Positions 1,653 to 31,197 of a stretch of DNA of 32,808 nucleotides are shown one piece after another. The notes below the pieces were generated by a model that worked only from the letters and a program-made list of their open reading frames with translations, was not told the DNA's origin and made no database searches. Numbering within the stretch: position 1 is the stretch's first letter; the number at the start of each line of letters is the position of its first letter. Both the position numbers and the translations under genes were made by a program. The DNA is taken from positions 1 to 32,808 of the forward strand of contig JAHFFI010000005.1 in the NCBI GenBank assembly GCA_023248025.1, written 5' to 3'. Source of the stretch: Candidatus Omnitrophota bacterium. GTDB lineage: Bacteria; Omnitrophota; Gorgyraeia; 2-02-FULL-51-18.

Positions 1653-1726
1653 GGGCGAATAGCTCAGCTGGTTAGAGCACCTCCTTTACACGGAGGGGGT
1701 CGTGGGTTCGAATCCTACTTCGCCCA
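1653..1726 (+). tRNA. tRNA-Val (anticodon TAC)
   Basis: GGGCGAA...TTCGCCC acceptor stem, AGCTCAGCTGGTTAGAGC D-arm, CTCC-TTTACAC-GGAG anticodon arm (TAC), GTGGGTTCGAATCCTAC T-arm. Confidence 0.95.
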
Positions 1727-1859: not shown

Positions 1860-4800
1860 GTGTGGTTTATCCTGTATCAAAACCCTTTTAATATGAAAAA
1901 ACCGAAGACACCGTATTTAAAGATCATCGCCGGCACGCTGGTCCTGGCATTTTTAGCGCAGGATTTTTGCTACGCCGCGCCCGAAATCGCGTCATTTTTC
2001 TCCTCTGATCAGAAGAACATAGATCAGCGGTGGGTGAAAAATGTGCTGCCTGATATTCCACGATCGGTGGCCGAGGTCGTAGATGCCTGGAAGGCCCCCA
2101 AGGAAAGCTCAAGTGGCCCTGAGAGAATCGTTTATCTCATCCAGGACGCCCACACCAATTCATCCGCACAGAAAAATATCGCGCGCCTACTGGAGCTGAT
2201 GTCAGCGGAGACTATTTTCTTGGAGGCCGGTTTTGGGGATGAGTCTCTTGGGTTTCTTAGACCGTATGCGACTAAGCTCGAAAGACAAAGATTGGCCGAT
2301 TCATCCATCCAGGAAGGGTTGATACAAGGCAGCGAATATTATGATCTCACGTCGACGCGCCCGGTGGGGCTTTACGGCGTAGAAAATCTAGCCCTTTATG
2401 CGCAGGCCGTTTCTTTGTACCGGGATGTCAGCCTCGAAAGAGAGCGTCTAAAAAATTACCTTTCACAAGTCCAAAGTGTGATTCAATCGCTCAAACCCAG
2501 AGTGTATCATCCGTTCCTGCGCATGATGGACAGACATTACCAGGATTTTGAAAGCGGCAAGACGACACTGACGGATTATGTCGGGTTCTTATACGAGCAG
2601 GCCGGGCAATTGGCGATCTCGATGGATTCGTACAAGGAACTCAAGCAGCTGCAAAAAATTCGCAAGGCCGAATCGCGGGTGGACTTTGATCAAACCAATG
2701 GTGAACTTGCGCAAGCCTTGTCTTCACTGGGGGAAGAAGAACGAAAAGTTGTCACGCAGGCCGCTTCCGATACGGCCCTATTTAAATTGTCCGGACAGTC
2801 TCACGCAGCCGCTTGGGGCACCTTTACTCTGCTCAGTGAAAAATTAACGGAGCAGAACAAGATGGGGAATTATCCCAACCTAACCCACTATTTTGAGTAT
2901 TTGAATCTTTGCGTGAAACTGGACGTCGAAAAAATTCTCCGGGAAAAAACAGCGCTTGAAAATGCCCTGGTTGCTGTTTATTGCATCACCTCTGATGAGC
3001 ACAAGCTGTTTGTGTCCGGTCAGCACATAACACTGCTTAAAAAAATGCTGGATCTATCGCTGACGCCCGAAGAATTTGAAAATTACCGCTCCCATAAGGA
3101 GGATTTTAATATCGCAGCGCTTACGGGCTTTCTCAACAAAAAAATTATAGATTTTAGAGATGGGTATGACAATACGAGTATTTTAGAAAAGGGTTATGAG
3201 GAAGCGATAGAAAAAAGTGAGGCGTTTTATGGGCTCACCTTTGCCCGAGACGAGCAGATGATAGGTCATGCGCTTACGGAGATGCAAAATGAAAATTTAA
3301 CATCGGCGGCGCTTGTGGCGGGCGGATACCACAGCGTAAATCTGATGCGTCAATTAAAACAAAAGGGCATTTCGTATGTTTGTTTAAGGCCACAAATTTT
3401 GCAGGAAACAAACCAGAAAAAATACGAAGCTATTTTGTTGGGTCAGCATATGGATGCGCAGTTGAATACTTCACTGCCGGTCCCGCCCCGGGTCTCGGCA
3501 ATCAGCGCTATGCGTTTCGGGCTGACACCCACGACGCGTGACGACCACCTAGTTGCTTTAAAATGGCCCTCACCTGAGGAAGCCGAGGGGAAGATCAACG
3601 TCGTGATGAGTCAAAGAAAAAAAGACTTAGGATTGCAGTTTGCTGCTGCCGGCGGGCGGTTGGCAAAGAAGGAAGTGAGTTCATACGGCCCCGCGGATTT
3701 AGTGCAAATCACGCAACAATCGGCCAGACTAATGCCCAGCCCGAAAGAAGCAGCCCTTCTTGAAAGCATAATACCTGCGTTGCCTCAGGATCTGATATTT
3801 TGGGTGTATCACCGCGTCGATGCATGGAAGAAACTTTTATCGCCTTATAAAACCAAGCCGGTTCCTTACGGGTTTTATACGCGATTCTCAAACCCTCCGA
3901 GTATTTCTTTGTTGGACTATTCCTCCGTCCCTTACATCTTGGTGCATGAAATTTTTCATGTTTTTCAGTGCATGGGCATGCGACAAGAATGGTCCATACG
4001 GTTTAAGCATTTTCTTTATAATGTTCCCGATAAAATCATTTCAGACGCTTTTAGGTCCTGGGAAACGTATTTCAAAGAGAGCTCTATTTACAGTAAGAGT
4101 GACGTAGGTTTGGAGCTGGGTGCGCATCTTTTTTCTACGCTTCATTTTTTCGATGAAGCCCCCTTTGAACCGTCCGCGCAAAATTTCGCATCTTTAAATG
4201 ATCATGGTCAATGGGACCCGCAGCTTGGGGACTATTTGCGGGAGGCTCTCGAAACTAGACCCTCTATGGGTCAGCTTTATCAAGTCACGAGAAATTTTGC
4301 ATCTCGTATTTTAGAGGCTCCAGATCCGGTCCGAGATCGGGTATTGGCCGGCCTGAGACAATATTTTGAAGCACACAGCCCGCTGCCGGTTCCTCAAATT
4401 TTTGAAGCATCCACCGAATCCCTCCAAGGGTCGCGTCTGGCACAATCTCAAACAGCGGTTTCTCCCGAAGAAATCACCGATGCAAGAGCCGTGGAGTTTT
4501 ACCGCATGCACAGGGAGCTACTGGCGCTATTTTCAGAATACAATCAAGCCAAGAAATCACCCACACCTCAGATAAAAAAAATAAAAGCCTTTCTTTCTCA
4601 GGTCAGATCCTATGCGGAAAGGCTGGCTCCTTACGAAGCGGAAATAAGGGAATCAAAGGATGAGGATGCAGCGGTTTTGGCATCGTTTGAAGGCCGATCA
4701 CCGCCGGAGCTTAAACGGATCGAGTCCGAATTATCAAAAGAAATCAAGTCCTACCATTCACTTTTTACCGAAGCTCATGCGAACCGTAACGAAAGTGCGC

Positions 4801-7800
4801 TTGACGATCTAAATCATCAAGTGATTGTTCTGCTTAAGCGGCGTCTAAAAATTCAGCTGTTGAGATTGCAATTGGAATTGCAGCAGACGCCCCTGCGCCA
4901 GGGCCCCATTTATTTGATCGTATTGAGCATCGTCGGTATTTACCACCGTCTTTCCTATGAGCATTTATGGCGCACCAGGCGTAAAAGGGGCCAGCTTGCG
5001 CTTGAAGGTTTTCATGTGGGCGACGCGACGGGACATCTGGCCTTTACTTTGTACTATGAAAGACAGCCTGTTTTAAGGGTGGTGCGTTCTGCCGCCGGCA
5101 AAGTGGCCTTAAGTCAGATTATTTGGAAAAAAGTGACTACAACCGCCGGCACGGATGCTCTGATGCCTGTGATGACGCCGCTTAAATTTGAAAGCGTGGA
5201 TCCGGCATTTCGCAGCCGGCTGCATGCGATAGTCAGTCAGGAAGAGGATTACACGCAGCTGATTTACCACGATTTGGCTTTGGAGGATGTATCTACGATT
5301 CTTGAAAAATATAAAGCGAGTCCTGCCGGGATGACAAAGGATATCCGCGCGCATGTCACAGATTCTTTAGAATCAGTTTTGGCAGGCCCCCACGGAAAAA
5401 ACGGACTGCGCTTAAAAAGAGCCCGTGTGGCGAGTGATACCCAACCCCCCAGAATGCTACCCATGCCAAAAGAAAGCCTCGAATCAGCCGTAACACTCCT
5501 TGCCAATAATGATATCCGGTCTGCGTTGGACCTTATTAAGAGTACCAGAGACTACATTCACGGCCGCCTGGGAGTTATAGAAAAAATAAGAATAGCCACC
5601 GCTCGAAAGAAAGATTATTTGTACCTTATTATCCGCGATGGCCAGCTTAGAAAGCTGCTGAGTGAAATCAACACAACAGTTGCAAACCGGCCCATTGATT
5701 TAATTACTTTAAAAAATCAAATGCAAGCACTTGAGGTTATTTTGGAAGAAAGTTTTCAATTTGTGATCAGAGAACGCGAATACATTAACGTCAAACGGAT
5801 GATTCAGAGTGTGCTGGTCGTCTATAAAAATTTTAGTAAAGAACCTGCAGATCCCAGGGATTTGAGAGCTGTTGTTAGCCAATCGCTCGCGGACATGACG
5901 CGGCGAGCCGAGGCGCGGGTGTCGGGCTCAAGGCTTTCGGCGCGCGTTGCCACCTTAAAACAGGCCACGATGCTTAAAAGACTTTCCGAACTTATTCTTT
6001 GGACGGAGGTTGCGATGATTGACTGGGCTAATCGCCAGAAAACAAGTCTGCCGGGGGTGGGCGGGCACGAGGCCGCTGCGGCTTCTTCACTTCACATCAT
6101 AATGGCGCTTGAACTTTTTAGCCGCCGGGGCGAAGACCATGTGGCGCACAAACCTCATTCGTCACCGGCGTATCATGCGTTGCAGTATTTTCTGGGGCAG
6201 ATCCCCAAGGAGGTTCTTTTTAGACTGAGAGAAAATGACATTACTTTAAAACCAAGCCCCTACCAGGAACTTATTGACGACACCTTGGCGAATTCTCCTC
6301 CCGAACTGGCCGCCGCCTACCAAGCGGGCCTAAACGAATTGCTCGAACAATTACCTTCATCCGCAAAGACAGATTTGGACAAGCCCGGTTTACATTCGTA
6401 TCCCGGGATGGCGGACGCCAAACTCAATCCGCGCGTGACCATTCCCACGGGTTCCGTGGGTCTTGGTCCTGCGGCCGTTATCGTCCTGGCACTGGTCAAA
6501 AAATGGCTGCAGGATAATGGCTATACGGTGCCGGATTCGCATTTTTTTGCCGTATTGGGCGATGCGGAATTCGAAGAAGGTAATCTTCAGGAGATTTTAC
6601 CGCTTGTCGCCGAGCACAAGCTTTCGGGCGTGACGCATATCGTCGACTACAACCGCCAGTCGCTGGACGGAAACACTCAAGACCAAAAACTTTATGAAAT
6701 GAAAAACCGCTACGCATCTACAGGCTGGAAAGTAGTGGAGCTAAAATGGGGGGGCCGCATGAAAGCCGCCTTTGCGAAAAAAGTCGGAGGAAAAATTTTC
6801 CAAAAGGTCATGGAAGACATGTCGCCTTCGGCATACCAAGCGCTCCTCGCCAAGACCGGTGCCCAAATCCGCGCTGAACTGCTTGAGAAAAATTTAAAGC
6901 TTAAACCTTTTCTTAAAGTTTATACCGATGCGGCTCTTAAAGAGCTATGGCTGGATCTCGGCGGTCATGATCTGATGGAGCTCACACACGCGCTTGAAGA
7001 AGCCAGGAGCTCCTCTCAGGCGACGGTGATCATTGCCCACACCATTAAAGGCTGGGGGCTTGATCCCCTCATCGGAAAGGTTAGCAATCATTCGGCACTT
7101 TTAAATAAGTCCGAGATGAGTGACCTGAAAACAAAATTAGGCATTCAAGGGATTTCAGAGGAAGATCCCTTTCCCACTTTGGATATCGACAGCACAGCGG
7201 CACAGTGGCTGAGTCAGGTGCAAGCTCGCTTGAAAACGGAAGAAAATATTTCCCGACAAGAAATCGCAAAAAATGAGAATCAATGGCCTTTGCTTCCCAC
7301 ACGCATCATGCCCGGCATTGCGGATGGCATGAAGGAAATCTCGACGCAAGCTTATTTTTCCCAGATGGTGGCCAAACTTCGCCGAATTGCGCAGACACCG
7401 ATAGAAAATCTTACCGGAGATGAAGCGGCTTTAAAATCACTGGCAGAAAGAGTCGTAACCCTTTCACCGGATGTAGGCACTTCTACCGGATTAAGACCCA
7501 AAGGTGCCGTGGGTGGTTATGGGCCGAACAATCCTAAGGATAATCATTTTCGTTTTAGCATCGCCGAGATGAATTCTATGACGACCAGCGCCGGTTTTGG
7601 CAAATCCCATGATTTTTTTGGCGTACGGACAATCCCCGTGCAAACTATTTATGAAATGTTTTGGGACAGGCGCGCATTGGATCCATTTTTTTATGCTCAA
7701 TACTGGGGGTCTTCATTTATTCAATTTGTCACACCCTCCGGTGCGACGCTGTCGTCCGAAGGCGTCCAGCATCAGGGCATTACGGGCGTTGTGGTGGCGG

Positions 7801-10800
7801 AAGCTGTGCCAAACTCTATTCTGTGGGATCCCTGGAACGAAACGGATCTTGATTTTATTTTTACGGATGCGTTGAACCGCACCGCACTGGGCAACGACGA
7901 AGGTAGAAATGTCGTCACTATTCGAGGCACGACAAAAAATATCAGTCGTGAGGAATTGATGAAGCGACTACGCAGTATAAAGGCAAACGCGGGCCTCACG
8001 GATGAGCAGATTTTGACCGCTCATCGAGCAAACGTGCTGGCGGGCGGCTACCGTTTAGTGGATTACCGCGTCCATGAAGGCTATAAACCAAATGAAAATG
8101 TTGTGAATATTTTTGCGATGGGCGCCATGGTTCCTGAGGCGCTTTCTGCCTCGGATGCGCTCCTAAAAAATGTAGGTACTTACGCCAATGTGATTGTGGT
8201 GACCAGTCCCACGCTTTTAAATGGGCGTCTTGCCGAACAGAGCCGTTATGAACATCTCATGAGTCTAGTGCCTAGAGAAGAACGGCCGTTTGTGCCTGTG
8301 GTGACCGTTGCGGATGCGCCCAAGATGCTGCTAAAAGGCATAGGGGACAGGGGCATCGGCCTCCAATCAGAGAATTTGGGACTTTCCGAAAACGGGCTTT
8401 CTACCAGGGATCCCTCAAAAATATATCGCCATCACGGCATCTCGCGTGTGGATATCTTTAATGCGGCTTACGGAATGCTGGTGGAAAGAGACCGAGATGG
8501 AAGTCAAGTCGAAGATCTTTTGAATGCACTTTATGAGGAGGATGCGGGCGCGCGGTTTTCTGCTTCGCTACGTCCTTACGGCGCAGCTTCGCAGGAACGA
8601 GGGGCAGAGCAGAGCGTAGGAGGGCGGTTGTCTTCCGCGCCGCTTTTTCGTTTGGTTTCTCTTAAGCCGCCGCTACGCGGACGGGGGTACCCCATACAGG
8701 GCGAAGTGACTTTCTTGGGTGATCCGGAAAGATTGAAGTCACACTTTTTTACTGCGGAAGAATGGATGCGCGAGTCGTTGGCAAATCGTCGATGGGGTTT
8801 TTATGGATCCGGCAAAGTACGCTTCAGAAAGGATTTCGCGACTTATCCTCAAATGTTTTCGCCATTTTTTGGCGCCATGACAGCCGAGCAGGTTTTTAAA
8901 ATGTGGCAAGGAATGCGGCGGGCAAATACATGGACGCCCGGCGAACCGTTTGTGGTGATCGAGCTGGGCGCGGGCGAAGGCGATCTGGCGCATGATTTTA
9001 TTGAGCACGCGCGCAAAAAAGCTAAAGACCATCAGCCTGAGTGGCAGGATTTTTATGACGCGTTGCAGTACCGCGCCGTAGAATTTTCGCCCGTCTCTTT
9101 TGATACGATGCGGTCTAAAAATAAGACTTTTATGGATCAGGGTAAGCTCGTGGCAGTCCATTCGGATGCGCTGGCTTATCTGGATACCGTGGGCCGGTCT
9201 CCGGTAAAAGGCGTCGTACTATCCAACGAATTTTTAGATGCTCTGCCGGCGCACCAGGTACGCGTACAACCGGATGGCCAGGTCGAGGCGGCCTTGTTTA
9301 TTCCCCTGATTGATACCGATGCGTTGAGGATGTTGTTCCGTTCGGGCGTGTTGGATCGGCAAAAGACAAACACATTTGTAATAGAGGGCCAGAATATAAG
9401 CGCCCTCTCAAAAAAGGATTTCCTTAAGATCAGAGAAAAATTGGAGGATCCAAAAAATAAGACCTTAGCCCGTGATTTGAAGAAACATTTACGCATGGCG
9501 ACCTGTTATTTAAATGCGCGCTATTTTACGGATGTGCAGGAATACGCTCGATTAAATTCAGAAGAGATTTCATCGGTCGCGTCTCGTCATAAAGCCGGCA
9601 ATGTTGCCTTGATTGGGACCATCCACCGCCATTTTATTAAAAAAGCAGCAGACGCTCTGAGCAAGGGGTATATATTTAGTATCGATTATATGGAGCCTTC
9701 TTATAATATCTGGAACCCGCTCGTTGGACAGATGGCCGCATTCTCAGGAAATAAAATATTTTCTGATTGGGTGCTGAACGCCGGAAATTATGATGTCACC
9801 TATGATCCGGATGCCACTTATTTGGATCAATTAGGCCGGCGGATGGGTTTAAAGACTGCCTATTTTGGCAGTCAAAGCAACCTGGAAAAAGGGACATCCT
9901 TTGACTTGAAGACCGAAGACACTTCTTTAGCGATTTATAGAAATTTGTTTCACCGGCGGTTGGAAGATCACCGCAGCGATATTCAAACTTCACGTGATTG
10001 GCTGAGCAGATTCTTTGATGAGTTTCCTATTGATGCCGTGACGACGTCTACGTTCATGGGCCAATGGCCGGAAATAGCATTAAAAAACTTTATCGAACAA
10101 ATAGTGAAAGATCCACGCGTCCCGACGGAAGATCAACCTATGGTAACGACGACATTACAGCAAGTTGTAAAAAATTTAGTAACTAGAACCCAACAAGCAT
10201 TGGATATGTATTTAAGGTCTTTCTATGAGCTTCATTTCAAAATCCTGATCCAGCAAAAACCGGGGACGGATGATTCTTATCAGTTTCCCGCACCTTCGAG
10301 GGACTTGTATCCCCAGGGCGCGCGCCTTAGCCTTGAACACAACGAAACGCTTAGCTTAAGCGAGCTTCTAGAAAAGTTAAATGGATTGGTAAAACTGATT
10401 GCCGGTGAAAGTGACCCCAAAGTGCTACAGGAATATATAAAATTGACGGACGGTTATGTAAATAAATTTTTAGAAGCTACTTCACTGTGGTCAGATGATC
10501 CATTTTCAACTGTTGAAATGGTAGCAGAGTACGAAAAATGGGCGAAGATTCTTATGAGGTTAGTCTACCAAGATGCGCAACTGGCCAGTAAGCAACACAA
10601 CACGGAAGTCAAAAACGCCGCGAAAATAGATCTCGTATCTAACCAATCGAATTTTTCTGAGGCGATTCTAAAACTTACCGGCTCGGCGCGCATTGTGGCC
10701 ATGAGTTCCCACAAAGCGACTTCCATTGAGGTTACCGCAGCTTCTCTAAAAGCGATTGAAAGTATCGCGGGTGAACTATTTGCGTTAATTCACAAAGAGA

Positions 10801-13800
10801 GGGGAGATTATTTATTTTTTACCCGATACAAGCAGGCACTTTTTTCTGCCGATCGTATTCTTGAGTGGCTTAGCGTATTATGGATGATAGGCGCTGCCGG
10901 TGATGCCATCTTGCCGGTGCTTGATCGTCTGATGGATCTTTACGAAGAAAAAGAAATTTTATACATTCTCTTGTCAATCCTGAATCATCCGGGGTCGGAC
11001 ATAAATCAAGACTTTAAATCAGACGTGGTCGATGAGCTTTCGTGGATGGCAGCAAATCTTGGCAAATTTAAACAAAAACTCGAAAAGGTCCAGTCACAAG
11101 ATGCCAATTACGCCGACGCTCAAAAACTGCTCGTGCATCTAAACCGTTTTTCAGAAGCCCGACATAAGTTAGAAATGGACTCCATGGAACCGGGTCACTT
11201 AGCCGGAAGGACTATCTTATTGTTCCGCGAGCTAGAAAAATTAAAGACCCCCGGCGCGAGGTTGGCCGTGCGCGTGGTTAAAAGGGTTGATTTTAAGAAC
11301 AGGGCGCCTTTGAATTTTTACAGAGCTATTCTGGCGCAGAAAAAAATAAAAGTTTCTTCGAATGCCCGATTCAAATGGTATGGGTGGCAATTCGAGACGC
11401 CGGATGGACGGGATACCCTTCAAAAATATGCGATACAGCGGCTTGACCGGCGATCTTACCGGATTTATGGTCAAAAAGATTACAATCCGTTTACCTTTGT
11501 GGATCTTCTATTCATTTATTCGAAATCCGGACGAAACCGAATCAAACTCAAATACACGACAGAAGGCCGGTACTGGATCAAAAACCGAAGACCTTATTTC
11601 ACGACCCACGCGGAAAGAAGGATCAGGAGTCCACTGATTCGGAGTATCGAGTTTCTGTCAGACGGTACGATGAAGGTTTATCTGGATCCGGCGGCCATGA
11701 AAGTATTCGATAGACCCAAAGTGTCTGAAGCTTTTCGGAAAGACGAAGAATATTTCATGACGCGTCAGGGAGACGCTGTGCACTTTGGCGATGGAATTGT
11801 ATTCATACCCGTCTCCACCCATGAAAAATCATCGGGTGCGCGGTTGGCGGGTGAAGCGGTCTATAGCGACAAGGCGCCGGCGGCAGTCGGGGCTTATCCG
11901 CATGCACGACGCTATGAAAACATGCTTTTTGTTTCCGGTATGGGGCCTCGGCAGCGTGGGGCAACTGAGATCCCTGGGGGGACCTTGAAGGATGGCAAAG
12001 CGGTCGCTCATGATATTGAAGCACAAATGCGTTCAACTTTTGAAAATCTGCGGTACATATTGGAAGCGGGCGGATTTTCATGGAAAGAAATTTTAAAAAT
12101 GAATATTTTCCTCACCCATCGATCGGATACACCGGCATTCGAGCGTCTTTGGAGGGAATATTTCCCGACCCAAGAGCATCAGCCCTCACGCAGCATTACT
12201 TTCGTTACCGCGCTGCCGACCCCGATCGCTTTTGAAGTCAACGCAGTGGCGGTCAAAGACTCATCCGTGCAGACACCTCTAGCCACTTTTGCTTTCATGA
12301 GCCAACCATCCGAGGATGCTGCCGATCAAATCCGTAAACTATTCAATAACGTAAAGGCCACGCTCGCACTGGATCGAATTCTCTCAGTCAGCGTTTCGCT
12401 GGCCGATATGAAATATTTCAAAATTTATAATGAAATATGGACAGAAGTATTCTCAGACACTCAACATCAGCCCGCGCGCACAACCGTCGCGGTCGGTACA
12501 CTGCCTGAGGGTGTTGCCATTCTAATTAAAGTAATCACCGTCCAGGAACAGGAAACGACTGAATTTTCAGGCGCACGGTTGGGGAAATATATTCCTAGAG
12601 GCCAACTATTTAACGCAGTGGCAATTGCCGTGTTAGCGGCATTTGCTTATTGGCAGAATTTTCTCCCGCTCGCATCGGACTCGTTTGGCATCTGGATCGC
12701 AAAAACAATCGGTACGTTTGTCAGTTTTGGGATTATTTCGGACACTCTGGCCAAACGCAGCACTGGAGAGCCCATGTCGTGGCGTGCTGCATTTCGCGCT
12801 GCTGCTTATGGAGCAATAAATGGATTTGTGACCATGGGATTTTTCTGGGGCATTGATCAAATTCCTAATCCTATAGGAAACCCTGTTACGCGGGCACTGC
12901 TACAAACATTTATCTTGAGCCAAATCCGTACACGGGTCAAAGCCCAAATGTTTCACACCCAAAATAAAGCGGCCAAAAAAGAAGGGATTGCCAAGAGGCG
13001 ATACGAATCTTTGTGGCTGAGCCGACTTCATGCCATCGGCAGTAATGCCGTGGTCCAATGGCTTCCATTCTGGGTTCGAGGTGCTGCCGAAGCGATCAAA
13101 ACCCAGTGGTTTGACCACTATTTTTCGTACGCGAATCATGATCCTAGACCGTCGCTACTTCGCCGCCCGGAACTTGTAAAACGCATTTCAAATTATTTCC
13201 CAGTCTGGATGGGAAAAGAACAGTGGGCGCTCATGGTTTATGGGCTGATAGCCCCTTTCCTTAATTTATACGATTTTGTGATGAAAAAGAATGTTTCATC
13301 ACTCGATCCGGATCGGAAAAGAGCACTTATGATTCGCACCTGGACTCCGGACGAATCCACAGGCCAAACTTATACTCATCCTTCCGAAATCCAAAAGTTC
13401 GTCATGGCTGAATTAAATCAAAGATTCAAACCGGATCAGACATTTAATATTCTGGATGCCGGCGCAGGAGCGGATCTATACACGCTTAGAAATATTAAGA
13501 GCCGTTTTCCAAACTCAAACGCCCATGCGCTGGATATCTTGCCGATAGACGAAATTGATTTGGATAAAGAGGACCCCTTTGTTTATCACCAGGATTTTCT
13601 GGAGAACACAAGTCTTCTTTCGGGTTCTTTCCAAGCGGTTGTTTCGACTTTGGTATTGGATTTTATTGAGCACGACAAAGCGGTTCAAGAAATCCATCGG
13701 CTACTTGCCGAGGATGGTGTAGCCATTGTGGTGATCCATCAGATTCCCGAAAACGTGTTGGCAGAGCATAGCGAGAAGATAAGCGCTTTCCATCAAATGC

Positions 13801-15758
13801 TTTCTCTTGCTAAAACTTCGGACGAGAGGGATTTGATAGAAGGCAACATCCTCTTGATCAAGACGTTTATTGAAAATCAACAACGTTTTGATTCTATCTA
13901 TAAAAGACGCCAATTTTTCAATTCGCGGGGTTTTAAAGTATTGAAAATGTTGACCGTTGATGAGGGGGACCGCGGCAACCTCGTCGGATTTGTTTTGAAT
14001 AAAGTACCCTCCGGTGCCCGGCTGGCGAAATCGGATCAAAAAATCCTCAATGCTATCGCATCTTTACAATTAAAAGGCAAAAAATCCATCACTCATGAAC
14101 TTATTGCCCAAGAGGCAGGACTGTCGTCCGGCACTATTTTAAATAGAAAATCCCGGAACTCCACTATCCAAAAAGCCGTGGATGAGGTGACCAAGGCTGA
14201 CTTTCAAATCTTATCGGCAATCGCATCCTTACAATCAAAAGGCCAACAACACATCACCCAGAAACTCATTGCCCAAGAAGCAGGGCTAGCGTCTCACACT
14301 ATCACCAAAAGAAAATCCCAGAATCCCGCTATCCGGAAAGCCGTGGATGAGGCGACATTTTTTACAGAGGCAGAATATAAAATCTTATCAGCTATCGCAT
14401 CCTTACAATCAAAAGGCCAAAAACACATCACCCAGAAACTCATTGCCCAAGAGGCAGGGTTATCACCTACAACTACCTCAAACAGAAGATCTCAAAATTC
14501 TGTTATCCGTAAAGCCATGGATGAGGTGACCAATACTGACCTCCAAATCTTATCAGCTATCGCATCCTTACAATTAAAAGGCCAACAACACATCACCCAG
14601 AAACTCATTGCCCAAGAAGCAGGTTTTACGCTTATCACTATTCGCAAAAGAAAATCCCAGAACTCCACTATCCAAAAAGCCATGGATAAGGCGACACATA
14701 ATGACCAAAAAAGCTCCGGCGCCCGACTCGCCACCCCGCTCACTATTGACCCCGTACTTAAAGAAGGTCTGAAATTGGTTTTGGTGGCTCAATATTTAAA
14801 GAAAAAAAACCTGGCACAAGATGAAAAATTTGCAGTTGAGGTGACTCAACAGGATAAAACATTTAACCCTGTTTTTGAAATCAAGATTTCGGGGGCGGAT
14901 GAAAATTTGACGCTTGCGCTGTTATTCAACGGCCAGGCCCAAGTGTCCTTGACGGGAGCGGAGATCAGCGAGTGGCAAACGAAATTGCGTCAACGGAGCG
15001 CTGACGCCCGGCAGAAACAAGCGATTATTTCCATCGCTAAGCTGGCACACAGGCGCATGGACGAGGCTTTGCCGGCAAGTCTTGTTGCATCAGAGGGCGT
15101 GATCGGGTTCAATATGCTTGATTTTAATCTGCAAAAAGATTCTGATTTTAAACAGGCCATAAAACTACTGCACGATTTACTGGCGGCATATGGGCCGGGG
15201 GAGTATTATTTATCCGGCATGGACTCGCAAGCGTTATCGCCCGCTAGAAAAAGATTTGTCGACTCGCAAGTATCTAAATACAAAAAAAAGTATCCCTTTA
15301 TTAAAATATTTCTGACGTATCCAACAGGAAAAATTCTCACCAAAGTGAAACTGATGAAAACTGGTGACAGTGAAATCCTTCCCCTAAGCTCTCAAAATGA
15401 ACTTCAAATTCTGGCGGCGGGGTTTTCTGACGGCCAGGTACCGAATTTAGACGGCGCGCTGCGGCTGGCTAAAAAAATAACGGTGGTTTATACGGCGCGG
15501 GCGGTGTCCGGCGCGCTGCCGCAGGATGCAGAAGCACTTGAAAAAATATATCAAGATTTAAACGAGGTGTCGCGTTTTATGCAAGAATTCTCAGAAAGCC
15601 AATCGCGGCCGTCCGGCCGCGCGCTCCACGCGTATTTTACGGGCGCCATGAACCTTACGGAATCTTTAAATCTGGTGCTTAAGCCGCTGACTGCCTATCT
15701 CGACAACATGGCCAGCGCCCTGGGTCTTATTCGTCAAAGCATTGAGATCAGCGCGTAA
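1860..15758 (+). CDS. Giant secreted modular multi-enzyme protein (about 4,620-4,632 aa)
   Basis: Single uninterrupted ORF. Listed start is GTG 1860; in-frame ATG 1893 (MKKPKTPYLKIIAGTLVLAFLAQDFCYA|APE) gives a clean signal peptide. Several recognisable enzyme modules, separated mostly by GARLA-like motifs. Confidence 0.9.
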   Translation: MWFILYQNPFNMKKPKTPYLKIIAGTLVLAFLAQDFCYAAPEIASFFSSDQKNIDQRWVKNVLPDIPRSVAEVVDAWKAPKESSSGPERIVYLIQDAHTNSSAQKNIARLLELMSAETIFLEAGFGDESLGFLRPYATKLERQRLADSSIQEGLIQGSEYYDLTSTRPVGLYGVENLALYAQAVSLYRDVSLERERLKNYLSQVQSVIQSLKPRVYHPFLRMMDRHYQDFESGKTTLTDYVGFLYEQAGQLAISMDSYKELKQLQKIRKAESRVDFDQTNGELAQALSSLGEEERKVVTQAASDTALFKLSGQSHAAAWGTFTLLSEKLTEQNKMGNYPNLTHYFEYLNLCVKLDVEKILREKTALENALVAVYCITSDEHKLFVSGQHITLLKKMLDLSLTPEEFENYRSHKEDFNIAALTGFLNKKIIDFRDGYDNTSILEKGYEEAIEKSEAFYGLTFARDEQMIGHALTEMQNENLTSAALVAGGYHSVNLMRQLKQKGISYVCLRPQILQETNQKKYEAILLGQHMDAQLNTSLPVPPRVSAISAMRFGLTPTTRDDHLVALKWPSPEEAEGKINVVMSQRKKDLGLQFAAAGGRLAKKEVSSYGPADLVQITQQSARLMPSPKEAALLESIIPALPQDLIFWVYHRVDAWKKLLSPYKTKPVPYGFYTRFSNPPSISLLDYSSVPYILVHEIFHVFQCMGMRQEWSIRFKHFLYNVPDKIISDAFRSWETYFKESSIYSKSDVGLELGAHLFSTLHFFDEAPFEPSAQNFASLNDHGQWDPQLGDYLREALETRPSMGQLYQVTRNFASRILEAPDPVRDRVLAGLRQYFEAHSPLPVPQIFEASTESLQGSRLAQSQTAVSPEEITDARAVEFYRMHRELLALFSEYNQAKKSPTPQIKKIKAFLSQVRSYAERLAPYEAEIRESKDEDAAVLASFEGRSPPELKRIESELSKEIKSYHSLFTEAHANRNESALDDLNHQVIVLLKRRLKIQLLRLQLELQQTPLRQGPIYLIVLSIVGIYHRLSYEHLWRTRRKRGQLALEGFHVGDATGHLAFTLYYERQPVLRVVRSAAGKVALSQIIWKKVTTTAGTDALMPVMTPLKFESVDPAFRSRLHAIVSQEEDYTQLIYHDLALEDVSTILEKYKASPAGMTKDIRAHVTDSLESVLAGPHGKNGLRLKRARVASDTQPPRMLPMPKESLESAVTLLANNDIRSALDLIKSTRDYIHGRLGVIEKIRIATARKKDYLYLIIRDGQLRKLLSEINTTVANRPIDLITLKNQMQALEVILEESFQFVIREREYINVKRMIQSVLVVYKNFSKEPADPRDLRAVVSQSLADMTRRAEARVSGSRLSARVATLKQATMLKRLSELILWTEVAMIDWANRQKTSLPGVGGHEAAAASSLHIIMALELFSRRGEDHVAHKPHSSPAYHALQYFLGQIPKEVLFRLRENDITLKPSPYQELIDDTLANSPPELAAAYQAGLNELLEQLPSSAKTDLDKPGLHSYPGMADAKLNPRVTIPTGSVGLGPAAVIVLALVKKWLQDNGYTVPDSHFFAVLGDAEFEEGNLQEILPLVAEHKLSGVTHIVDYNRQSLDGNTQDQKLYEMKNRYASTGWKVVELKWGGRMKAAFAKKVGGKIFQKVMEDMSPSAYQALLAKTGAQIRAELLEKNLKLKPFLKVYTDAALKELWLDLGGHDLMELTHALEEARSSSQATVIIAHTIKGWGLDPLIGKVSNHSALLNKSEMSDLKTKLGIQGISEEDPFPTLDIDSTAAQWLSQVQARLKTEENISRQEIAKNENQWPLLPTRIMPGIADGMKEISTQAYFSQMVAKLRRIAQTPIENLTGDEAALKSLAERVVTLSPDVGTSTGLRPKGAVGGYGPNNPKDNHFRFSIAEMNSMTTSAGFGKSHDFFGVRTIPVQTIYEMFWDRRALDPFFYAQYWGSSFIQFVTPSGATLSSEGVQHQGITGVVVAEAVPNSILWDPWNETDLDFIFTDALNRTALGNDEGRNVVTIRGTTKNISREELMKRLRSIKANAGLTDEQILTAHRANVLAGGYRLVDYRVHEGYKPNENVVNIFAMGAMVPEALSASDALLKNVGTYANVIVVTSPTLLNGRLAEQSRYEHLMSLVPREERPFVPVVTVADAPKMLLKGIGDRGIGLQSENLGLSENGLSTRDPSKIYRHHGISRVDIFNAAYGMLVERDRDGSQVEDLLNALYEEDAGARFSASLRPYGAASQERGAEQSVGGRLSSAPLFRLVSLKPPLRGRGYPIQGEVTFLGDPERLKSHFFTAEEWMRESLANRRWGFYGSGKVRFRKDFATYPQMFSPFFGAMTAEQVFKMWQGMRRANTWTPGEPFVVIELGAGEGDLAHDFIEHARKKAKDHQPEWQDFYDALQYRAVEFSPVSFDTMRSKNKTFMDQGKLVAVHSDALAYLDTVGRSPVKGVVLSNEFLDALPAHQVRVQPDGQVEAALFIPLIDTDALRMLFRSGVLDRQKTNTFVIEGQNISALSKKDFLKIREKLEDPKNKTLARDLKKHLRMATCYLNARYFTDVQEYARLNSEEISSVASRHKAGNVALIGTIHRHFIKKAADALSKGYIFSIDYMEPSYNIWNPLVGQMAAFSGNKIFSDWVLNAGNYDVTYDPDATYLDQLGRRMGLKTAYFGSQSNLEKGTSFDLKTEDTSLAIYRNLFHRRLEDHRSDIQTSRDWLSRFFDEFPIDAVTTSTFMGQWPEIALKNFIEQIVKDPRVPTEDQPMVTTTLQQVVKNLVTRTQQALDMYLRSFYELHFKILIQQKPGTDDSYQFPAPSRDLYPQGARLSLEHNETLSLSELLEKLNGLVKLIAGESDPKVLQEYIKLTDGYVNKFLEATSLWSDDPFSTVEMVAEYEKWAKILMRLVYQDAQLASKQHNTEVKNAAKIDLVSNQSNFSEAILKLTGSARIVAMSSHKATSIEVTAASLKAIESIAGELFALIHKERGDYLFFTRYKQALFSADRILEWLSVLWMIGAAGDAILPVLDRLMDLYEEKEILYILLSILNHPGSDINQDFKSDVVDELSWMAANLGKFKQKLEKVQSQDANYADAQKLLVHLNRFSEARHKLEMDSMEPGHLAGRTILLFRELEKLKTPGARLAVRVVKRVDFKNRAPLNFYRAILAQKKIKVSSNARFKWYGWQFETPDGRDTLQKYAIQRLDRRSYRIYGQKDYNPFTFVDLLFIYSKSGRNRIKLKYTTEGRYWIKNRRPYFTTHAERRIRSPLIRSIEFLSDGTMKVYLDPAAMKVFDRPKVSEAFRKDEEYFMTRQGDAVHFGDGIVFIPVSTHEKSSGARLAGEAVYSDKAPAAVGAYPHARRYENMLFVSGMGPRQRGATEIPGGTLKDGKAVAHDIEAQMRSTFENLRYILEAGGFSWKEILKMNIFLTHRSDTPAFERLWREYFPTQEHQPSRSITFVTALPTPIAFEVNAVAVKDSSVQTPLATFAFMSQPSEDAADQIRKLFNNVKATLALDRILSVSVSLADMKYFKIYNEIWTEVFSDTQHQPARTTVAVGTLPEGVAILIKVITVQEQETTEFSGARLGKYIPRGQLFNAVAIAVLAAFAYWQNFLPLASDSFGIWIAKTIGTFVSFGIISDTLAKRSTGEPMSWRAAFRAAAYGAINGFVTMGFFWGIDQIPNPIGNPVTRALLQTFILSQIRTRVKAQMFHTQNKAAKKEGIAKRRYESLWLSRLHAIGSNAVVQWLPFWVRGAAEAIKTQWFDHYFSYANHDPRPSLLRRPELVKRISNYFPVWMGKEQWALMVYGLIAPFLNLYDFVMKKNVSSLDPDRKRALMIRTWTPDESTGQTYTHPSEIQKFVMAELNQRFKPDQTFNILDAGAGADLYTLRNIKSRFPNSNAHALDILPIDEIDLDKEDPFVYHQDFLENTSLLSGSFQAVVSTLVLDFIEHDKAVQEIHRLLAEDGVAIVVIHQIPENVLAEHSEKISAFHQMLSLAKTSDERDLIEGNILLIKTFIENQQRFDSIYKRRQFFNSRGFKVLKMLTVDEGDRGNLVGFVLNKVPSGARLAKSDQKILNAIASLQLKGKKSITHELIAQEAGLSSGTILNRKSRNSTIQKAVDEVTKADFQILSAIASLQSKGQQHITQKLIAQEAGLASHTITKRKSQNPAIRKAVDEATFFTEAEYKILSAIASLQSKGQKHITQKLIAQEAGLSPTTTSNRRSQNSVIRKAMDEVTNTDLQILSAIASLQLKGQQHITQKLIAQEAGFTLITIRKRKSQNSTIQKAMDKATHNDQKSSGARLATPLTIDPVLKEGLKLVLVAQYLKKKNLAQDEKFAVEVTQQDKTFNPVFEIKISGADENLTLALLFNGQAQVSLTGAEISEWQTKLRQRSADARQKQAIISIAKLAHRRMDEALPASLVASEGVIGFNMLDFNLQKDSDFKQAIKLLHDLLAAYGPGEYYLSGMDSQALSPARKRFVDSQVSKYKKKYPFIKIFLTYPTGKILTKVKLMKTGDSEILPLSSQNELQILAAGFSDGQVPNLDGALRLAKKITVVYTARAVSGALPQDAEALEKIYQDLNEVSRFMQEFSESQSRPSGRALHAYFTGAMNLTESLNLVLKPLTAYLDNMASALGLIRQSIEISA
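2130..3480 (+). other. Domain: N-terminal ChaN/TraB (Tiki-like) fold candidate within the giant protein
   Basis: RIVYLIQDAHTNSSAQKNIARLLE...TIFLEAGFGDE...GLYGVENLALYAQ...ALVAGGYHSVNLMRQLKQKGISYVCLRPQI resembles the spaced motifs of the ChaN/TraB/EreA-like superfamily. Assigned by eye only. Confidence 0.45.
3690..4130 (+). other. Domain: putative zinc-metallopeptidase-like segment with HExxH
   Basis: PYILVHEIFHVFQCMGM; HEIFH encoded at 3945-3959, followed by a possible downstream Glu/His in VGLELGAHLF. Confidence 0.45.
5943..8540 (+). other. Domain: homodimeric pyruvate dehydrogenase E1 / transketolase-like (TPP enzyme)
   Basis: GGHEAAAASSLHIIMALELFSRRGEDHVAHKPHSSPAYHALQYFLG; GLHSYPGMADAKLNPRVTIPTGSVGLGP; FFAVLGDAEFEEGN...IVDYNRQSLDGN (TPP motif region); SFIQFVTPSGATLSSEGVQHQGITG. 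Length about 870 aa, comparable to full AceE. Confidence 0.85.
8700..9880 (+). other. Domain: MidA/NDUFAF7-like SAM-dependent methyltransferase (COG1565-type)
   Basis: PFFGAMTAEQVFKMW...PFVVIELGAGEGDLAHDFIEHARKK...GVVLSNEFLDALPAHQVRV...GYIFSIDYMEPS. Confidence 0.75.
11859..12548 (+). other. Domain: tandem RidA (YjgF/YER057c/UK114) domains
   Basis: Copy 1: YSDKAPAAVGAYPHARRYENMLFVSGMG...PSRSITFVTALPTPIAFEVNAVAV. Copy 2: TPLATFAFMSQPSEDAADQIRKLFNNVKATL...PARTTVAVGTLPEGVAILIKVITVQ. Both retain the Arg preceding the TxVxV-like strand. Confidence 0.8.
12590..12900 (+). other. Domain: hydrophobic membrane-spanning segment (possible Mpv17/PMP22-like)
   Basis: LFNAVAIAVLAAFAYWQNFLPLASDSFGIWIAKTIGTFVSFGIISDTLAKRSTGEPMSWRAAFRAAAYGAINGFVTMGFFWGIDQ: several hydrophobic stretches; the family assignment is tentative. 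Confidence 0.45.
13420..13860 (+). other. Domain: class I SAM-dependent methyltransferase
   Basis: TFNILDAGAGADLYTLRNIKSRFPNSNAHALDILP...GSFQAVVSTLVLDFIEHDKAVQEIHRLLAEDGVAIVVIHQ. Confidence 0.75.
14028..14710 (+). repeat. Four tandem HTH-like repeats (55/58/55-codon spacing) inside the giant protein
   Basis: Repeated ILSAIASLQ(S/L)KGQ(Q/K)HITQKLIAQEAGL...R(K/R)S(Q/R)NS(T/A)I(Q/R)KA(V/M)DE. The ATC (Ile) codon anchors lie at 14043, 14208, 14382 and 14547. High nucleotide identity, especially units 2-4. Confidence 0.93.
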
Positions 15759-23296: not shown

Positions 23297-23623
23297 ATGA
23301 CATCCGCGCGGAATGCTTATGAAAATGCGGTGGACTTGATTGCCAAAGGGGAGAAAGAAAGGGCCGCCGAGGCGCTTGAGGCGATGATTTCGGTGTACCC
23401 AGATTTTGCCGATGCTTATGAAACGCTCGGCATGGTATTTTATAAATTGAATCGTTACGATGATGCGATAGTGTGGACCGACAAACTGGCCAAGCTCAGG
23501 CCTGATTATGCGATGGCGCATACGAATTTGTCTGTTTTTTATATGAAAAAAGGCGATAAAATAAAAGCCGAAGAAGAAAAAGCTTTGGCCACGGTTTTAA
23601 GTTTCGGGAAAGCAAAAAAATGA
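23297..23623 (+). CDS. Small TPR-repeat protein
   Basis: AYENAVDLIAKGEKERAAEALEAMISVYPDFADAYETLGMVFYKLNRYDDAIVWTDKLAKLRPDYAMAHTNLSVFYMKKGD: consecutive TPR motifs. Confidence 0.85.
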   Translation: MTSARNAYENAVDLIAKGEKERAAEALEAMISVYPDFADAYETLGMVFYKLNRYDDAIVWTDKLAKLRPDYAMAHTNLSVFYMKKGDKIKAEEEKALATVLSFGKAKK

Positions 23624-24495
23624 CCAAGAATCATCTGCGCATAGGACTCGTCCAGATGCGCTGCCAGAAAAATCCGGCGGACAATTTAAAAAAAGCATTA
23701 AGCCAGGTGAGAATCGCCGCGCGAAAAGGCGCACAAATAGTGTGTCTCCAGGAGCTTTTCAATACGCCTTATTTCTGTCAGGGGCAAAAAACCGAGCACT
23801 TTGACCTGGCCGAGACAATCCCCGGTCCCGTCACGGACGCCTTGGCCAACCTAGCCCGAAAAGAAAAAGTGGCACTCATTGCGCCGCTTTTTGAAAAGTA
23901 CCGTAAAGGTGTTTATTATAATTCCGCGGCGGTCATCGACTCAAACGGCGAACTCATCGGCAAATACCGCAAAATGCATATTCCGGACGACCCGGGATTC
24001 AATGAAAAATTTTATTTTTCGCCGGGCGACCTCGGTTTTAAGACATTCAAAATAAAGTCCGTCAAGATAAGCGTCCTCATCTGCTGGGACCAGTGGTTCC
24101 CGGAAGCCGCGCGCATGGCGGCACTCGACGGCGCGGATATTCTTTTTTATCCCACGGCCATCGGCTGGAAACCCAATAAACCCAAAGAGACGGAAGCTTA
24201 TCATTCTGCCTGGGAAACGATACAAAGAAGCCACGCTATCGCCAACGGTGTTTTTGTGGCGGCGACGAACCGCGTGGGCCAGGAAGGAGCTCTCAGGTTC
24301 TGGGGACAGTCTTTTGTGGCGGATCCCTTCGGTGCCGTGCTTTATCGCGCGAGCGAAAAAGACGAAGAGATTGTCATTGCCGATTGCGATCTCGCGAAAG
24401 TCGAGCAAACCCGTCGCGAATGGCCATTTTTCCGCGACCGGCGCATGGATGCCTACCAAGCGATCTCGTCCCGTTCCGTTGAGAAAAAAAATTAA
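23620..24495 (+). CDS. aguB: N-carbamoylputrescine amidase (carbon-nitrogen hydrolase)
   Basis: IVCLQELFNTPYFCQ, GKYRKMHIPDDPGFNEKFYFSPGD, VLICWDQWFPEAAR: Glu-Lys-Cys triad; sits directly upstream of agmatine deiminase. Confidence 0.92.
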   Translation: MTKNHLRIGLVQMRCQKNPADNLKKALSQVRIAARKGAQIVCLQELFNTPYFCQGQKTEHFDLAETIPGPVTDALANLARKEKVALIAPLFEKYRKGVYYNSAAVIDSNGELIGKYRKMHIPDDPGFNEKFYFSPGDLGFKTFKIKSVKISVLICWDQWFPEAARMAALDGADILFYPTAIGWKPNKPKETEAYHSAWETIQRSHAIANGVFVAATNRVGQEGALRFWGQSFVADPFGAVLYRASEKDEEIVIADCDLAKVEQTRREWPFFRDRRMDAYQAISSRSVEKKN

Positions 24496-25516
24496 CTTCC
24501 GGATGCCGGCGGAGTGGGAACCCCACGCCGCGACTTGGCTTTCCTGGCCCCACAACGAGATTACCTGGCCTGGTCGGAAGCTTGCCGAGGTCGAGAATAT
24601 CTACGTACAGATGATGTCGGCGCTATTGCCAAATGAAAAAGTAAATCTTTTGGTAAGCAATACGACCGAAGCCAAAAAAGCGGCAACCGCACTGTCACGC
24701 CGCGGCATTTCTTTAAAGAATCTTATTTTCCACCGCGTCAACACCGTCGATACCTGGATACGTGATTATGGTCCGATATTTGTGAAAAAGGCGGAGGTTG
24801 CTTTTACCAAGTGGATTTTTAACGCATGGGGCGGAAAGTACCAGGACCTGGCCCGCGATACCGGCGTAGTGGACAAGCTTCCGGTGCTTAAAAAATACAA
24901 ACGCGTGGATACAGGCATCATTCTCGAAGGTGGCTCGATTGATGTGAACGGACGGGGGACGCTGCTTACGACAGAACAGTGTCTTCTCAACCCGGGCCGT
25001 AATAAACATCTTTCAAAAAGCGGGATAGAGAATTATTTAAAAAAATATCTTGGTGTTCGCAAGGTTGTATGGCTAAAAGAAGGTATTGAAGGGGATGACA
25101 CGGACGGTCATGTGGACGACATTACGCGCTTCATCAATGTCTCGACCATTCTCACAGCCCTTGAGCCCAATACCCGCGACAAAAATCACGCATGGCTGCA
25201 AGAGAATCTAGAAATATTAAAGCGTGAAAAAGACGCGGATGGAAAGCGTTTCACGCTGGTTGAGCTTCCGATGCCCGGTGTGGTTGGACCCGCACGGAGC
25301 GACATGAAACACAAACGTCTTCCCGCAAGCTATGCCAATTTTTACATCGCGAATGGGGTGGTGCTACTGCCCGTGTACAGTCACGCCAACGACAAAAAAA
25401 CGGAGCGCATTTTAAAAAAATGTTTTCCTTCGCGAAAGATCGTTCCGATAGAATGCTCACCGCTTGTTTATGGTCTCGGCTCCATTCACTGCGTCACGCA
25501 GCAAGAGCCGCGTTGA
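24479..25516 (+). CDS. aguA: Agmatine deiminase
   Basis: FRMPAEWEPHAATWLSWPHNEITWPG, DTWIRDYGPIFV, LEGGSIDVNGRGTLLTTEQCLLNPGRN, DDTDGHVDD, GLGSIHCVTQQEP. Start likely TTG 24479 or ATG 24503; the ORF-track start at 24248 is inside aguB. Confidence 0.92.
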   Translation: MRKKINFRMPAEWEPHAATWLSWPHNEITWPGRKLAEVENIYVQMMSALLPNEKVNLLVSNTTEAKKAATALSRRGISLKNLIFHRVNTVDTWIRDYGPIFVKKAEVAFTKWIFNAWGGKYQDLARDTGVVDKLPVLKKYKRVDTGIILEGGSIDVNGRGTLLTTEQCLLNPGRNKHLSKSGIENYLKKYLGVRKVVWLKEGIEGDDTDGHVDDITRFINVSTILTALEPNTRDKNHAWLQENLEILKREKDADGKRFTLVELPMPGVVGPARSDMKHKRLPASYANFYIANGVVLLPVYSHANDKKTERILKKCFPSRKIVPIECSPLVYGLGSIHCVTQQEPR

Positions 25517-26418: not shown

Positions 26419-26431
26419 CTTCTGCTATAAT
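26404..26431 (+). promoter_or_regulatory. Candidate promoter for the pur operon
   Basis: TTGAAA (26404-26409), 16-nt spacer, TATAAT (26426-26431), about 30 nt upstream of the purB start. Confidence 0.5.
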
Positions 26432-26461
26432 AGTAGCTCCACCGAAGCCTTGGAGTGACTT

Positions 26462-27757: not shown

Positions 27758-27758
27758 T

Positions 27759-27998
27759 ATGAAAGCCAAAGTTTACGTGACGCTAAAAAGATCCGTTTTG
27801 GACCCGCAGGGCAAGGCCGTCCAGCACGCGCTCCAGACTTTAGGTTTCGAAAATGTGAAAGACGTCCGAATGGGCAAATTTATCGAGCTCGACATGAAGG
27901 ACATCCCTAAGCCCGAGGCGGAACAAAAGCTCAGATCCATGTGTGAGAAACTTTTGGCCAATACGGTCATCGAAGAGTACAAATACGAACTGGTCTAA
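27759..27998 (+). CDS. purS: Phosphoribosylformylglycinamidine synthase subunit PurS
   Basis: KVYVTLKRSVLDPQGKAVQHALQTLGFENVKDVRMGKFIELD. Confidence 0.97.
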   Translation: MKAKVYVTLKRSVLDPQGKAVQHALQTLGFENVKDVRMGKFIELDMKDIPKPEAEQKLRSMCEKLLANTVIEEYKYELV

Positions 27999-28001
27999 AA
28001 A

Positions 28002-30925: not shown

Positions 30926-30935
30926 GAGTTATACA

Positions 30936-31196: not shown

Positions 31197-31197
31197 T

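What the first reader, a model, noticed from the sequence alone, without database searches (positions are those of the whole stretch)
1860..15758. Giant secreted ORF strings together unrelated enzyme modules (polyprotein-like architecture)
Seen: one 13.9-kb ORF with a Sec-type signal peptide (MKKPKTPYLKIIAGTLVLAFLAQDFCYA|AP), then ChaN/TraB-like, HExxH, AceE-like E1, MidA-like methyltransferase, 2x RidA, membrane segment, class I methyltransferase, 4x HTH-like repeat and a C-terminal domain. These families are normally separate cytosolic proteins and do not form a known pathway together. Giant ORFs are known from Omnitrophota-like bacteria, but this cargo combination with regular spacers looks like a polyprotein or exported cargo scaffold. 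The function is inference.
Basis: partly seen in the sequence, partly recalled or inferred. Interest (0 to 1): 0.87.

Follow-up and report, generated by a model that had tools for sequence, protein, structure and literature searches.

The report
Secreted bacterial polyproteins with repeated linkers
This Omnitrophota genome packs unrelated enzymes into very long exported proteins. A conserved protease-like head starts each one, and the same short linker (SGARLA) separates the enzymes, so the giant genes known from these bacteria may encode polyproteins that are cut into many separate enzymes.

Summary
The 13.9-kb ORF is real (4,632 aa; likely start ATG 1893) and is not a one-off fusion. The genome encodes at least five more such ORFs, and relatives have them up to 12,582 aa. 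In 33 ORFs the motif occurs 139 times against 2 for its reversal. None of 140 sites falls inside a Pfam domain (18 expected). ORFs with an intact 5' end start with a Sec signal peptide and a ~500-aa head whose invariant D-x-H / E / R / H residues match the TIKI endopeptidase active site. Long ORFs tend to end in Ala (16/22 vs 29/252 other ORFs). The head occurs in 175 of 384 Omnitrophota genomes. A second lineage uses a different linker, R[SA]E[VLM]R. All 21 GARLA-type heads form one fully supported clade with no RxExR type in it. Cargo is reshuffled and includes pyruvate-dehydrogenase-like E1, isocitrate lyase, malate synthase and hexokinase. Best explanation: a Sec-exported polyprotein cut at the linkers, perhaps by its own TIKI head. 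Export signal, linkers and modularity are shown. Cleavage, protease identity and cargo destination are inferred.

The parts
1860..15758 (+). Giant ORF, 4,632 aa from the GTG; likely true start ATG 1893
   Evidence: N-terminus aligned with paralogues
1893..1976 (+). Sec-type signal peptide (MKKPKTPYLKIIAGTLVLAFLAQDFCYA)
   Evidence: equivalent basic + hydrophobic N-terminus in 71 of 72 relatives
1977..3464 (+). Head domain, TIKI-superfamily-like; invariant D85-x-H87, E111, R452, G477-G478-x-H480 (numbered from ATG 1893)
   Evidence: 73 heads; AlphaFold2 pLDDT 88.5; TIKI active-site comparison; PF04187 hits
3651..3665 (+). Linker motif 1 (GGRLA)
3651..4427 (+). Module: zincin-like, HExxH at aa 696 (VHEIFHVFQ); related module in paralogue P0004
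4428..4442 (+). Linker motif 2 (GSRLA)
4428..5924 (+). Module: no Pfam match, function unknown
5925..5939 (+). Linker motif 3 (GSRLS)
5925..8546 (+). Module: AceE-like pyruvate dehydrogenase E1 / transketolase fold; also found in L032 and, in part, in L090
8547..8561 (+). Linker motif 4a (GARFS)
8619..8633 (+). Linker motif 4b (GGRLS)
8619..10316 (+). Module: MidA-like SAM methyltransferase (Methyltransf_28); also found in L022
10317..10331 (+). Linker motif 5 (GARLS)
10317..11252 (+). Module: no Pfam match
11253..11267 (+). Linker motif 6 (GARLA)
11253..11834 (+). Module: no Pfam match
11835..11849 (+). Linker motif 7 (SGARLA)
11835..12569 (+). Module: two RidA (Ribonuc_L-PSP) domains
12570..12584 (+). 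Linker motif 8 (SGARLG)
12570..14012 (+). Module: hydrophobic segments plus class I methyltransferase (PF08241)
14013..14027 (+). Linker motif 9 (SGARLA)
14013..14717 (+). Module: four HTH-like repeats of about 57 aa
   Evidence: (HTH_24, weak)
14718..14732 (+). Linker motif 10 (SGARLA)
14718..15755 (+). C-terminal module ending -EISA; C-terminal [AS]A is a family feature

Best explanation
The ORF encodes a Sec-exported polyprotein. SHOWN: a signal peptide; a conserved TIKI-like head; about ten unrelated modules separated by the motif SGARLA; the same design in other ORFs of this genome and in related genera; reshuffled cargo; a C-terminal Ala signature; a linker motif that depends on lineage and tracks head phylogeny. 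INFERRED: after export the chain is cut at or next to the Arg of each linker, releasing the modules as separate enzymes. The most likely cutter is the head itself, a TIKI-family endopeptidase acting in cis or in trans, with linker specificity that diverged between lineages (SGAR-LA versus RSEVR). Also INFERRED: one signal peptide thereby exports many normally cytosolic enzymes, to act in the periplasm, at the cell surface, or in a host or prey cell. My confidence is about 0.95 for modular exported architecture, 0.6-0.65 for cleavage at linkers, 0.4 for the head as the protease, and 0.3-0.4 for delivery to another cell. The number in this field is for the whole chain as far as 'cleaved at the linkers'.
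For: Motif enrichment 139 to 2 over its reversal in 33 ORFs; found de novo without presupposing it. 0 of 140 sites fall inside Pfam domains, 18.2 expected, none of 20,000 simulations as low. The second linker R[SA]E[VLM]R has 41 sites, 0 inside domains, 5.9 expected, P 0.001. A transketolase module (Pfam 1391-2031) lies between RxExR sites at 1374 and 2097 in L090. The AceE module is bracketed by the motif in two polyproteins, window and L032. In the own genome 12 of 13 DNA-pattern hits fall in frame in giant ORFs. Seven places in the genome carry the head. Signal peptide in 71/72. Head residues D85-x-H87, E111, R452, H480 are invariant in 73 heads and match RRSP's 2His/2Glu plus Arg set (E3900-x-H3902, E3930, R4001, H4030; PMC6254334), with R-to-H spacing 28 vs 29 and H-to-E spacing 24 vs 28. 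All 21 GARLA-type heads lie in one 100/100 clade containing no RxExR type; all 15 RxExR types lie outside it. C-terminal Ala in 16/22 long ORFs vs 29/252 others, p = 8e-10.
Against: No proteomic or biochemical evidence of cleavage. Foldseek against the PDB gave no match below E 0.001 for the head model, so the TIKI assignment rests on residues, strand order and weak Pfam hits. Many ORFs with the same head (label 'none', 28 of 76) show no recognisable linker motif. Synonymous codons in the linker are biased (A = GCG 73% vs 32%, R = CGG 49% vs 18%), so some DNA- or mRNA-level cause is also present. Tracking head phylogeny could reflect shared ancestry of host and its protease rather than head specificity.
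Confidence: 0.6

Rival explanations
1. Uncleaved exported multi-enzyme scaffold: the linkers are flexible hinges or docking sites bound by another protein, and the giant chain works intact at the surface.
For: Literature treats Omnitrophota giant ORFs as intact surface or adhesion proteins (PMC10066038). Linkers are Pro/Ser-rich at their N-terminal side. No cleavage data exist.
Against: A hinge does not need a near-invariant A-R-L core in 139 copies. Cargo is unrelated soluble enzymes, not adhesins. Two lineages use two different Arg-containing linkers.
Confidence: 0.22
2. Exported polyprotein cut at the linkers by a separate host protease; the TIKI-like head has another role (recruitment, inhibition, a different substrate). 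This is a sub-case of 'cleaved at the linkers'.
For: Arg in both linkers would suit an Arg-specific protease. Some genomes carry the head as a short ORF without long cargo.
Against: Clan CD candidates C11 and C14 are absent from all 20 genomes checked. S41/Prc is missing from 6 of 9 genomes of the window's family. No conserved neighbour gene was seen beside the giant ORFs inspected.
Confidence: 0.3
3. The linker is a DNA-level element (recombination or insertion site) through which modules are swapped; its peptide has no function.
For: Codon choice in the motif is biased towards GGC-GCG-CGG-YTG in several genomes. Cargo is reshuffled.
Against: Arg and Leu are each encoded by all six codons while the residues stay invariant. 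DNA conservation stops sharply at the motif with no conserved flanks. Hits lie in frame on the coding strand of giant ORFs.
Confidence: 0.08
4. Assembly artefact or decayed gene fusion.
For: The source is a fragmented, 84%-complete genome.
Against: Same design in several ORFs of this genome, in the window's family and in many other genera, including a single-cell genome, L060; no internal stops; E1 active-site residues kept.
Confidence: 0.01

Closest known systems
Giant ORFs of Omnitrophota (Velamenicoccus archaeovorus 39,678-aa protein; giant ORFs in PMC10066038)
   Same: Same phylum; giant exported ORFs; poorly annotated
   Different: The published text found here describes adhesion, transmembrane or polysaccharide-degrading giants and does not use the word polyprotein. 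It reports no TIKI-like head, repeated linker, C-terminal Ala or metabolic cargo in the passages read. Whether the V. archaeovorus protein itself has this head was not tested.
MARTX toxins (multifunctional autoprocessing RTX)
   Same: Works like: one giant secreted chain, variable modular cargo, release by protease cutting between modules (PMC6315884); one MARTX effector, RRSP, is itself a TIKI endopeptidase (PMC6254334)
   Different: MARTX has repeat-containing N- and C-terminal arms and an InsP6-activated cysteine protease domain; neither was seen here. Here there is a Sec signal peptide, a TIKI-like head, a repeated sequence-defined linker and metabolic cargo.
TIKI superfamily (Tiki, RRSP, EreA/EreB, ChaN, TraB/PrgY)
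   Same: Invariant D/E-x-H, E, R and GG-x-H positions and a parallel-strand core order
   Different: Asp instead of Glu in the first pair; a large helical insertion between E111 and R452; fused to giant cargo
Viral polyproteins
   Same: Works like: one ORF, many products, repeated cleavage-type sites
   Different: Bacterial chromosome, Sec-exported, metabolic enzymes, no sequence relation

Membership tests
TIKI superfamily endopeptidase | Catalytic 2His/2Glu (E-x-H ... E ... H) plus conserved basic residue | tested here: met
   D85-x-H87, E111, R452, H480 invariant in 73 heads against RRSP residues; note Asp for the first Glu
TIKI superfamily endopeptidase | Significant profile match | tested here: inconclusive
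   PF04187 (Tiki superfamily, ChaN) in 2 of 73 heads, best 4.2e-5, below the curated cut-off in the one hit whose score is shown; no PDB sequence match
TIKI superfamily endopeptidase | Parallel beta-sheet core fold | tested here: inconclusive
   Confident model (pLDDT 88.5) with strand order placing QDxH, E and GGxH at strand ends; Foldseek not significant
TIKI superfamily endopeptidase | Peptidase activity | not testable with these tools
   needs biochemistry
MARTX toxin | Cysteine protease domain and repeat-containing arms | tested here: not met
   No such Pfam matches in 6 own-genome and several related ORFs
Polyprotein | Single ORF with several independent protein domains separated by recurring sites | tested here: met
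Polyprotein | Proteolytic maturation into separate products | not testable with these tools
   needs proteomics or N-terminomics
Sec-exported protein | Signal peptide | tested here: met
   Basic + hydrophobic N-terminus in 71 of 72 heads with AxA/SxA-type ends common; SignalP not available
S41 (Prc/Ctp) processing at C-terminal Ala | S41 peptidase present in genomes with the feature | tested here: not met
   Absent from 6 of 9 genomes of the window's family, some 89-93% complete

The most novel reading that the evidence does not exclude
Giant genes of Omnitrophota that carry this head are self-processing secreted polyproteins. A TIKI-type protease head and its linker sequence co-evolve by lineage, and the released cargo (E1, isocitrate lyase, malate synthase, hexokinase, aldolases, methyltransferases) is exported to work outside the cytoplasm, possibly rewiring the metabolism of a prey or host cell.
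Probability: 0.3. Interest if true: 0.95.

Novelty: categorically new. Interest (0 to 1): 0.86.

Why it matters
Giant ORFs in Omnitrophota are a known puzzle whose roles are described as poorly understood (PMC10066038). This gives at least one large class of them an anatomical rule (signal peptide, TIKI-like head, linker-delimited cargo, C-terminal Ala) that can be scanned for, and turns the puzzle into a direct test: are the linkers cut, and by the head? If so, bacteria use large self-processing polyproteins to export whole sets of metabolic enzymes. I found no earlier description, but the library I could search holds no bioRxiv preprints and few subscription papers, so priority is not established.

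Tried and rejected
Arg-specific clan CD proteases as processor: C11 and C14 absent from 20 genomes. S41/Prc as reader of the C-terminal Ala: absent from 6 of 9 genomes of the window's family. Foldseek of the head against the PDB: no significant match; the long helical insertion dominates. Profile search of the PDB with 73 heads: nothing. AlphaFold2 of the RidA region as a single sequence failed (pLDDT 37) and says nothing about linker order. G050's apparent 35,113-aa ORF contains 24,000 masked residues and is discarded. DNA-level recombination-site reading: no flank conservation, in-frame only, but synonymous codon bias is real and unexplained. Literature searches for 'polyprotein' with Omnitrophota, for 'bacterial polyprotein' and for GARLA/SGARLA gave nothing relevant. 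The motif patterns were chosen after seeing the data; de novo enrichment and reversed/permuted controls guard against that. The Pfam-avoidance and C-terminal tests are not corrected for relatedness of ORFs, and the Pfam spans were entered by hand from the best stretches.

Full report
1. The observation. The window holds one uninterrupted ORF, 1860-15758 (+), 4,632 aa. The likely start is ATG 1893, which gives a classical signal peptide. Pfam finds RidA twice, Methyltransf_28 (MidA), the transketolase/E1 domains and a class I methyltransferase. The E1 module aligns with E. coli pyruvate dehydrogenase E1 at 5e-34 and keeps residues such as the Glu in LSSEGVQH and AHTIKG, although GDG has become GDA. 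What it called regular spacers are irregular in spacing but share a sequence.

2. The linker. A motif [GA][AGS]R[LF][ASG] occurs 11 times, at module borders. A DNA pattern for [STAC etc.]-G-A-R-L-A in the whole 1.46-Mb genome gave 13 hits; 12 are in frame in giant ORFs, on contigs C21, C47, C52, C79, C82 and C111. These are further giant ORFs: P0002 (4,015 aa), P0003 (3,385), P0006 (3,830, cut at its 5' end), P0004 (1,853, both ends open) and P0005 (1,058, 3' open). In 33 ORFs of this lineage [GA]ARL[AS] occurs 139 times; the reversed motif occurs 2 times and permutations 0-2 times. A blind k-mer enrichment finds GARLA, AARLA or G.RLA as a top pattern in many of them. The site logo is P-S-[GA]-A-R-L-[AS] with little information further out. 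In relatives G348 and G031, 24 of 30 DNA-pattern loci lie in frames longer than 400 aa.

3. Linkers avoid domains. In 13 ORFs with Pfam matches, 140 linker sites after the head were tested; none lies inside a Pfam span, against 18.2 expected, and none of 20,000 simulations was as low. The matched modules are unrelated: E1, MidA, RidA, isocitrate lyase, malate synthase, DeoC aldolase, histidine phosphatase, hexokinase, starch-synthase-like glycosyltransferase, GDPD, GHMP kinase, DHDPS, calcineurin-like phosphatase, HEAT repeats, beta-propeller, acyl-carrier-like domain. Modules are reshuffled: the E1 module recurs in L032 with linkers near its borders and in part in L090; the MidA module recurs in L022; the zincin-like module recurs in P0004; C-terminal domains are shared by P0006 and G348 and by L025, L058 and P0003.

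4. A second linker in another lineage. In other Omnitrophota the blind search finds R[SA]E[VLM]R (L090 14 copies, L091 12, L093 10; reversed-type control 3, 0, 0). Of 41 such sites in four ORFs, none lies inside a Pfam span, 5.9 expected, P 0.001; a transketolase in L090 spans 1391-2031 between sites at 1374 and 2097. About a third of the head-bearing ORFs (28 of 76) show no recognisable linker of either type.

5. The head. ORFs of the family with an intact 5' end begin with a basic-hydrophobic signal sequence (71 of 72) and a ~500-aa domain. Its invariant residues over 73 sequences are Q84, D85, H87, E111, G162, F445, R452, G477, G478, H480, P500. AlphaFold2 gives a confident model (pLDDT 88.5, pTM 0.84) in which QDxH, E and GGxH follow beta strands and a long helical insertion separates the halves. 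This matches the TIKI active site as established for RRSP: E3900-x-H3902, E3930, R4001, H4030 (PMC6254334); R-to-H spacing is 28 here and 29 there, H-to-E spacing 24 and 28. Two of 73 heads hit PF04187 (Tiki superfamily, ChaN), weakly. Foldseek found no significant PDB match. I file it as a probable TIKI-superfamily member with unproved activity.

6. Distribution. Seven heads lie in this genome. Among 384 Omnitrophota genomes 175 have the head, in 138 of 283 genera. Named relatives are nearly all Omnitrophota, including single-cell genome SCGC AAA011-A17, plus Auribacterota. Open frames reach 12,582 aa (the part read) with 12 GARLA sites in G190 and 6,904 aa in G348; an apparent 35,113-aa frame is an artefact of masking. 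In a tree of 76 heads all 21 GARLA-type ORFs fall in one clade of 28 with 100/100 support and no RxExR type inside; all 15 RxExR types lie outside it.

7. The other end. Long complete ORFs end in Ala in 16 of 22 cases (12 in AA or SA), against 29 of 252 other ORFs of the same contigs (Fisher p = 8e-10); the window's ORF and three paralogues end in ISA, SAA, QSA and YSA. The obvious reader, S41/Prc, is missing from 6 of 9 genomes of the family, so this stays unexplained.

8. Mechanism. Shown: export signal, conserved head with an intact TIKI-type residue set, linker-delimited unrelated cargo, lineage-specific linkers that follow head phylogeny, terminal Ala. Inferred: cleavage at the linkers, most simply by the head, and action of the released enzymes outside the cytoplasm. 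In this 84%-complete genome the only full-length isocitrate lyase and AceE-like matches lie in polyproteins, so this cargo is not merely a spare copy. Clan CD Arg-proteases C11 and C14 were not found. An HExxH motif is enriched in the ORFs (15 against 4.3 expected, controls 3 and 4; one pair is a duplicate) and some of these zincin-like modules are alternative protease candidates.

9. Known relatives. It works most like MARTX, a giant secreted chain whose effectors are cut apart (PMC6315884), but lacks MARTX's defining protease and arms. Giant ORFs in Omnitrophota are known and described as poorly understood (PMC10066038); the organisation described here was not found in the papers I could search. 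It is rated categorically new on that basis, with the caveat that preprints and most subscription journals were not searchable.

Noticed in passing
L091 ORF, aa 1976-2356: An intein splicing domain (PF14890, 3.5e-22) sits between two RxExR linkers (1940 and 2385) inside a giant ORF of another Omnitrophota lineage.
   Followed up: no
linker sites in the own genome and relatives: Synonymous codons of the linker are biased to GGC-GCG-CGG-YTG in several genomes although Arg and Leu use all six codons; flanks are not conserved. Cause unknown.
   Followed up: partly
C-termini of giant ORFs: C-terminal Ala (often AA or SA) is strongly over-represented in both linker lineages; the S41 protease that would suit it is absent from most genomes of the window's family.
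   Followed up: partly
P0006 (L020:9-11498:-): Isocitrate lyase, malate synthase and aldolase-type modules lie in one polyprotein, and that isocitrate lyase is the only full-length one found in the genome.
   Followed up: partly
L034 ORF, aa 1043-1431: Hexokinase of the two-domain PF00349/PF03727 type as polyprotein cargo.
   Followed up: no
L068, L085: The head and long ORFs also occur in Candidatus Auribacter fodinae (Auribacterota), outside Omnitrophota.
   Followed up: no
several genomes of family f9, e.g. G162, G205: The head occurs as a short ORF of about 520-560 aa without cargo; what it does alone is unknown.
   Followed up: no
P0001 aa 696, P0004 aa 1319, L079 aa 943, L093 aa 1802: Recurring HExxHxxQ zincin-like motif in polyproteins of both lineages.
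   Followed up: partly
window 1653-1726 and 123-1511: tRNA-Val just upstream of the giant ORF; an FkbM-type methyltransferase and a cyclophilin-type peptidyl-prolyl isomerase gene lie before it.
   Followed up: no
window 23620-32604: Downstream genes read by eye as a nitrilase/agmatine-deiminase-like pair and purine biosynthesis genes (purB, purQ, purL, purF-like), apparently unrelated to the finding; only the lipid A acyltransferase (25420-26418) was checked by Pfam.
   Followed up: no
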